The notes under the pieces: model-generated
What the model was told of the DNA's origin: nothing
The model's input: the letters and a program-made list of their open reading frames with translations, nothing else
Databases searched by the model: none
Source: a virus
Virus record (IMG/VR): IMGVR_UViG_3300017751_000016
Span: 1-60,616 of that record
Reading direction: 5' to 3' (one strand)
Length of the DNA stretch: 60,616 nt
Position numbers and translations under genes: made by a program
Part shown: one piece after another, positions 280-351 of the stretch
Position numbering within the stretch: the stretch's first letter is position 1
How the letters are laid out: every line of letters begins with the position of its first letter

Positions 280-351
280 ATGTGGACTAAGCCAACTTAC
301 GAAAATGTACGACTCGGCTTTGAAATCACCATGTATTTCAAAACTCGTTAA
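280..351 (+). CDS. pqqA: PqqA-like PQQ precursor peptide (23 aa)
   Basis: A 23-codon gene, ATG at 280 and TAA at 349-351, with GGAG at 269-272 as ribosome binding site, 7 nt before the start. The peptide begins [13 protein letters not shown] and continues [10 protein letters not shown]. It matches the PqqA family over its whole length: MW-KP at the start, the R-x-G-x-E segment, and the invariant Glu15-x3-Tyr19 pair that the radical SAM enzyme PqqE (with PqqD) cross-links and that becomes the PQQ skeleton. Known bacterial PqqA peptides are 22-24 aa, so this copy looks full length and functional. No pqqBCDE genes are visible here; the phage would feed the host pathway. PQQ serves periplasmic methanol, alcohol and sugar dehydrogenases. 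The gene lies between the tmRNA terminator and the endolysin gene. Confidence 0.85.
   Translation: [23 protein letters not shown]

What the first reader, a model, noticed from the sequence alone, without database searches (positions are those of the whole stretch)
280..351. Phage-encoded PqqA, the peptide precursor of the cofactor PQQ
Seen: a 23-codon gene with a good ribosome site whose product has the MW-KP start and the Glu-x3-Tyr pair of PqqA, too short for usual gene callers. Known: PqqE/PqqD cross-link exactly these two residues, and each PQQ consumes one PqqA peptide, so substrate supply can limit the pathway. Inference: the phage boosts PQQ in a host that relies on PQQ dehydrogenases (for example XoxF/MxaF methanol dehydrogenase), keeping energy flowing during infection. 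I know of no well-described phage pqqA.
Basis: partly seen in the sequence, partly recalled or inferred. Interest (0 to 1): 0.93.

Follow-up and report, generated by a model that had tools for sequence, protein, structure and literature searches.

The report
Phage gene for a PQQ-cofactor precursor peptide
A T4-like phage carries a complete 23-amino-acid gene for PqqA, the peptide that bacteria cut up to make the redox cofactor PQQ; the same tiny gene sits in more than 200 other phage sequences, including nine sequenced phages of methanol-eating Methylophilales bacteria where it was overlooked, so phages probably feed their host's cofactor pathway during infection.

Summary
Window 280-351 encodes [23 protein letters not shown], which passes both curated PqqA models (PF08042, 39.5 bits against a cut-off of 21.1; TIGR02107, 44.2 against 20). 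The window is a T4-like phage (gp32, baseplate, sheath, portal, terminase, head protein). Complete PqqA genes occur in at least 207 IMG/VR contigs and nine Methylophilales phage isolates; none of the isolate annotations seen names it. In a scan that left codons 15 and 19 free, 120 of 120 keep Glu15 and Tyr19; pN/pS is 0.21 in the window's subtype. No phage checked has PqqE, so the peptide must use host enzymes. One relative carries pqqA with XoxF methanol dehydrogenase, a quinoprotein-associated SoxYZ carrier and formate dehydrogenase. The closest bacterial peptides (21/23 identical) are in one gammaproteobacterial family whose examined members carry PQQ alcohol dehydrogenases. In this phage pqqA lies in a roughly 230-bp cassette inside a permuted tmRNA gene; close relatives with an intact tmRNA lack it. 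Best explanation: an extra substrate gene that raises or sustains PQQ synthesis; inferred, with no expression or PQQ data. Viral pqqA has been reported before (Lake Baikal, 2020), so breadth, selection and anatomy are what is new.

The parts
280..351 (+). pqqA, 23 codons plus stop: [23 protein letters not shown]; Glu15 and Tyr19 are the residues PqqE cross-links in known PqqA
269..272 (+). Shine-Dalgarno-like GGAG, seven bases before the pqqA ATG
   Evidence: sequence; ribosome-site motif upstream of 148 of 149 pqqA genes analysed
78..261 (+). coding piece of a permuted (two-piece) tmRNA: 5' end GGGG at 78, tag ANDDYYEGLRLAA at 171-212, beta-tmRNA-like 3' part at 202-254; the acceptor piece lies off the contig end
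   Evidence: complete in L062 and L191 by ARAGORN
1..77 (+). intervening segment between acceptor and coding pieces of the tmRNA (arms AACACTG / CAGTGTT)
   Evidence: comparison with L062, L189, L191; inference
124..354 (+). cassette of about 230 bp (new tmRNA tag half plus pqqA) in place of about 74 bp in close relatives lacking pqqA
355..405 (+). probable relic of the 3' end of the original tmRNA coding piece, left downstream of pqqA (end approximate)
   Evidence: homology to L178 from 7390 on, inside its tmRNA as called by ARAGORN
411..986 (+). cell-wall hydrolase / endolysin (PF07486), next gene downstream; context

Best explanation
280-351 is a genuine phage pqqA. During infection the phage makes extra PqqA peptide. 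The host's own PqqD and PqqE bind it and cross-link Glu15 to Tyr19, a host protease trims it, and host PqqB and PqqC finish PQQ. Because each PQQ consumes one peptide, a small, cheap gene can raise PQQ output, or keep it going after host transcription is shut off. That keeps PQQ-dependent alcohol/methanol dehydrogenases supplied with cofactor and electrons flowing to respiration while the phage replicates. Shown here: identity, selection, viral context, wide occurrence, and absence of PqqE from the phages checked. Established knowledge: the PqqD/PqqE chemistry. Inferred: expression, use by host enzymes, and the gain for the phage.
For: Both curated PqqA models pass. Nine further phage peptides and one bacterial peptide tested all pass PF08042. 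At least 207 IMG/VR contigs carry the gene; all 149 sequences in the main set are whole, 148 with a ribosome-site motif. With codons 15 and 19 left free, 120 of 120 are Glu and Tyr; Arg11, not fixed by the first scan, is 120 of 120 with six different codons, and pN/pS is 0.21 in the window subtype. Among 50,697 phage records the only phages found are nine Methylophilales isolates and one uncultured podovirus. None of the flanks holds pqqB-E and none of 30 long records passes the PqqE cut-off. One phage-like contig carries pqqA with XoxF, the quinoprotein-associated SoxYZ carrier and formate dehydrogenase. Candidate host family: peptides 21/23 identical, pqqABDEC in L151 and L152, several PQQ alcohol dehydrogenases. 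Published work: a methylotroph carries five pqqA copies, three standing alone (PMC9851590); single-gene over-expression of pqqA is ranked second among the pqq genes for PQQ level in Gluconobacter (cited in PMC7936290).
Against: No transcript, peptide or PQQ measurement. Host known only by peptide similarity. Close phage relatives lack pqqA at this site and elsewhere in their records, so it is accessory. The candidate hosts have their own pqqA, so substrate limitation is assumed. In Acetobacter pqqAB alone raised PQQ only 29% against eight-fold for the whole cluster (PMC7936290).
Confidence: 0.75

Rival explanations
This is a sub-reading of the best explanation and not exclusive of it.
For: The phage is T4-like; only the consumed part of the pathway is carried, never PqqE.
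Against: Also found in small phages (34-44 kb isolates) not known to me to degrade host DNA. No time-course data.
Confidence: 0.4
2. The peptide acts as a decoy or competitor that ties up PqqD/PqqE and lowers host PQQ.
For: It is a family member and should bind the same enzymes (inference).
Against: Glu15 and Tyr19 are kept in all sequences even when not selected for, which a decoy would not need; one contig pairs pqqA with XoxF.
Confidence: 0.04
3. A recently captured passenger carried along with the tmRNA half, without function in this phage.
For: In the window it sits in one cassette with a replaced tmRNA half.
Against: pN/pS 0.21 and whole genes throughout; in other T4-like relatives pqqA sits at a different place, near the homologue of window 60114-60616.
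Confidence: 0.04
4. The contigs are bacterial fragments wrongly filed as viral.
For: One such case exists: 'Acinetobacter phage MD-2021a' holds a bacterial pqqABCDE operon.
Against: T4 structural genes in the window; nine sequenced phage isolates carry it; no pqqB-E in flanks.
Confidence: 0.01

Closest known systems
PqqA (PF08042 / TIGR02107), pyrroloquinoline quinone precursor peptide
   Same: Match over the whole PF08042 model, length 23, W2, P5, R11, Gly-Phe-Glu-x-Thr-Met-Tyr core with Glu and Tyr in register
   Different: Stands alone in a phage genome; no pqqB-E beside it
Lake Baikal methylotroph phage VP_266 (PMC7678222)
   Same: T4-like phage contig with pqqA; that study proposed it supports methanol dehydrogenase
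   Different: One freshwater contig with a predicted Methylophilaceae host and a methanol dehydrogenase. The window has no methanol dehydrogenase in the part held and its pqqA lies inside a tmRNA gene; the Baikal peptide itself was not available to compare
Stand-alone extra pqqA copies in PQQ-using bacteria
   Same: pqqA away from the pqq operon: five copies in a methylotroph (PMC9851590), nine pqqA-like copies in one gammaproteobacterial-class genome here
   Different: Chromosomal, not viral
Melnitz, Venkman, MEP301, MEP401, MEP402, P19250A (Methylophilales phages)
   Same: Each carries a whole pqqA
   Different: PqqA of the ATEMRFGFEVTMYVMNK subtype or close to it; different genomic positions; not called PqqA in the records seen and not mentioned in the four papers checked

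Membership tests
PqqA precursor peptide | Score above the curated cut-off of the family models | tested here: met
   PF08042 39.5 bits (cut-off 21.1); TIGR02107 44.2 bits (cut-off 20)
PqqA precursor peptide | Glu-x3-Tyr pair that becomes PQQ | tested here: met
   E15 and Y19; 120 of 120 relatives in a scan that left both free
PqqA precursor peptide | Short gene with start, ribosome site and stop | tested here: met
   148 of 149 with a ribosome-site motif; translation itself not measured
PqqA precursor peptide | Processing enzymes PqqB-E present in the cell | tested here: inconclusive
   Not in the window. Present as pqqABDEC in L151 and L152, bacteria with a 21/23 identical peptide; host not proven
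PqqA precursor peptide | Serves as PqqE/PqqD substrate and restores PQQ in a pqqA mutant | not testable with these tools
   needs bench work
Phage auxiliary metabolic gene | Lies in a real phage genome | tested here: met
   gp32, baseplate, sheath, portal, terminase, head protein in the window; nine isolate phages
Phage auxiliary metabolic gene | Maintained by selection | tested here: met
   pN/pS 0.21; Arg11 120 of 120 with six codons
Phage auxiliary metabolic gene | Alters host metabolism in infection | not testable with these tools
   no infection data

The most novel reading that the evidence does not exclude
Extra PQQ made from the phage peptide leaks out and closes the PQQ importer PqqU, which some phages use as receptor and which they cannot bind when it holds PQQ (reported for E. 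coli and phage IsaakIselin in PMC12124388). The phage would then both feed host respiration and shut out rival phages with one 23-residue gene.
Probability: 0.04. Interest if true: 0.85.

Novelty: new member of a known kind. Interest (0 to 1): 0.62.

Why it matters
Viral pqqA has, in the papers I could search, been noted only in passing. Here it appears as a recurrent, selected phage gene that gene callers tend to skip because it is so short; it was overlooked in cultured Methylophilales phages. It also offers a small marker for predicting PQQ-producing hosts from viral contigs.

Tried and rejected
The search for related loci refuses a 23-aa query, so degenerate DNA patterns were used. The 'Acinetobacter phage MD-2021a' hits were dropped as a bacterial pqq operon. 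Host inference through tmRNA failed: candidate-host tmRNAs are one-piece with tags such as ANDDSYALAA, unlike the phage tag. Single-linkage clustering of loci merges most contigs through shared genes, so numbers of independent acquisitions are not claimed. Promoter and terminator scan around pqqA was near the chance level. An alphaproteobacterial PqqA query written from memory found only the Melnitz phages, weakly. Protein searches with Venkman and MEP402 genes, meant to list Methylophilales phages lacking pqqA, turned up no further phage of that host.

Full report
What is there. The window is a 60,616-base IMG/VR virus record. It is a T4-like phage by its genes: gp32 and a T4 baseplate protein; baseplate hub, wedge, terminase, sheath, portal and major head protein; a helicase loader and a late-transcription regulator. 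At 280-351 lies a 23-codon ORF, [23 protein letters not shown], with GGAG seven bases before the ATG. It passes PF08042 at 39.5 bits and TIGR02107 at 44.2 bits, each about twice the cut-off. A PqqA-core DNA pattern occurs once in the window and in none of 100 shuffles.

Is it a real, selected gene? In the first scan all 120 translate to a complete peptide. With the isolates and the window, 149 sequences gave peptides of 23-25 residues and a ribosome-site motif in 148. The second scan left codons 15 and 19 free, yet 120 of 120 encode Glu and Tyr. Arg11 was not fixed by the first scan and is Arg in all 120, spelt with six codons; pN/pS is 0.21 for the window subtype and 0.38 over the codons the first scan left free. 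The patterns do fix other core residues, so conservation there is not evidence.

Who else has it? Among 50,697 phage records the only convincing phage hits are nine Methylophilales isolate records (Melnitz x4, Venkman, MEP301, MEP401, MEP402, P19250A) and one uncultured podovirus. In the records seen the gene is either unannotated or lies under a 'hypothetical protein'; in Melnitz-1 and in the podovirus that is an opposite-strand ORF. The four papers describing Melnitz, Venkman, MEP301 and MEP401/402 do not mention phage pqqA (the PQQ mention in the Melnitz paper is a medium ingredient). I could not list every Methylophilales phage record, so 'all' is not claimed.

What works with it? No pqqB-E lies in the flanks and no PqqE passes the cut-off in 30 long records, so the peptide depends on host enzymes. 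One contig, IMGVR_UViG_3300025120_009955, carries pqqA at 41887-41958, then a quinoprotein dehydrogenase-associated SoxYZ-like carrier (TIGR04557), and about 6 kb upstream a PQQ alcohol dehydrogenase (TIGR03075) closest to lanthanide-dependent XoxF structures, with formate dehydrogenase alpha just after it. The contig also has phage-type ribonucleotide reductase, GroEL and DNA ligase matches; no capsid gene was found among the ORFs tested.

Likely host. A genome scan for the window subtype returned three loci: two gammaproteobacterial MAGs with pqqABDEC and a peptide 21/23 identical, and one 5-kb contig in a Verrucomicrobiales bin with no pqqB-E. In the family of the first MAG 26 of 99 genomes have a PqqA match, one with [23 protein letters not shown], also 21/23 identical. 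The three members examined hold several PQQ alcohol dehydrogenases above the cut-off. Peptide similarity is a lead, not a host assignment.

Anatomy. Upstream is a permuted two-piece tmRNA (RF04321 21.7 bits, E 0.015, cut at the contig end; RF01850 18.8 bits, E 5e-4; both below gathering score). Relatives found through gp32 clarify it. L178 and L180 (99% and 96% gp32 identity) and L187 and L192 have intact permuted tmRNAs with tags such as ANDEAFALAA and no pqqA anywhere in their records, which are fragments. In the window, L062, L189, L191 and L354 the tag half is replaced by another type ((A)ANDDYYEGLRLAA or close), pqqA follows directly, and a stretch matching the end of the old tmRNA remains beyond pqqA. 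In other T4-like contigs pqqA lies near the homologue of window 60114-60616. So the gene is accessory and occurs at different sites.

Mechanism. Established knowledge: PqqE with PqqD cross-links Glu and Tyr of PqqA, and each PQQ uses one peptide. Stand-alone pqqA copies occur in bacteria (PMC9851590; nine copies in one genome). The simplest reading is extra substrate for host enzymes. Boost and maintenance cannot be told apart here.

Prior art. PMC7678222 reported pqqA on one Baikal T4-like contig and proposed support of methanol dehydrogenase; PMC13188868 lists viral pqqA, pqqD and pqqE in sediments. Only open-licence papers could be searched. The new parts are breadth, evidence of selection, presence in cultured phages, and the tmRNA cassette.

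Noticed in passing
window 78-405; L062, L189, L191, L354 against L178, L180, L187, L192: The tag-coding half of a phage permuted tmRNA has been swapped for another type together with pqqA, leaving a probable relic of the old tmRNA end downstream of pqqA.
   Followed up: partly
L060 and L367 (IMGVR_UViG_3300025120_009955): Phage-like contig with XoxF-type methanol dehydrogenase, formate dehydrogenase alpha, quinoprotein-associated SoxYZ carrier and pqqA: pieces of a methanol-oxidation route.
   Followed up: partly
L002 (CAKLQF020000010.1): Record named Acinetobacter phage MD-2021a contains a bacterial ppk and pqqABCDE region here; the phage label looks wrong for this stretch.
   Followed up: no
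L003 2461-2556 and L005 2067-2195: Deposited hypothetical proteins on the opposite strand overlap the pqqA of Melnitz-1 and of podovirus ctXG6705; probably miscalled ORFs.
   Followed up: no
   Followed up: no
L150 (WTHG01000117.1): 5-kb contig binned as Verrucomicrobiales holds an orphan pqqA of the phage subtype; possibly a phage contig in the bin.
   Followed up: no
window 9869-10948: Many overlapping partial matches to one stretch of L180 suggest an internally repeated region.
   Followed up: no
window 26558-33763: 2401-aa ORF matching PHROG families of unknown function.
   Followed up: no
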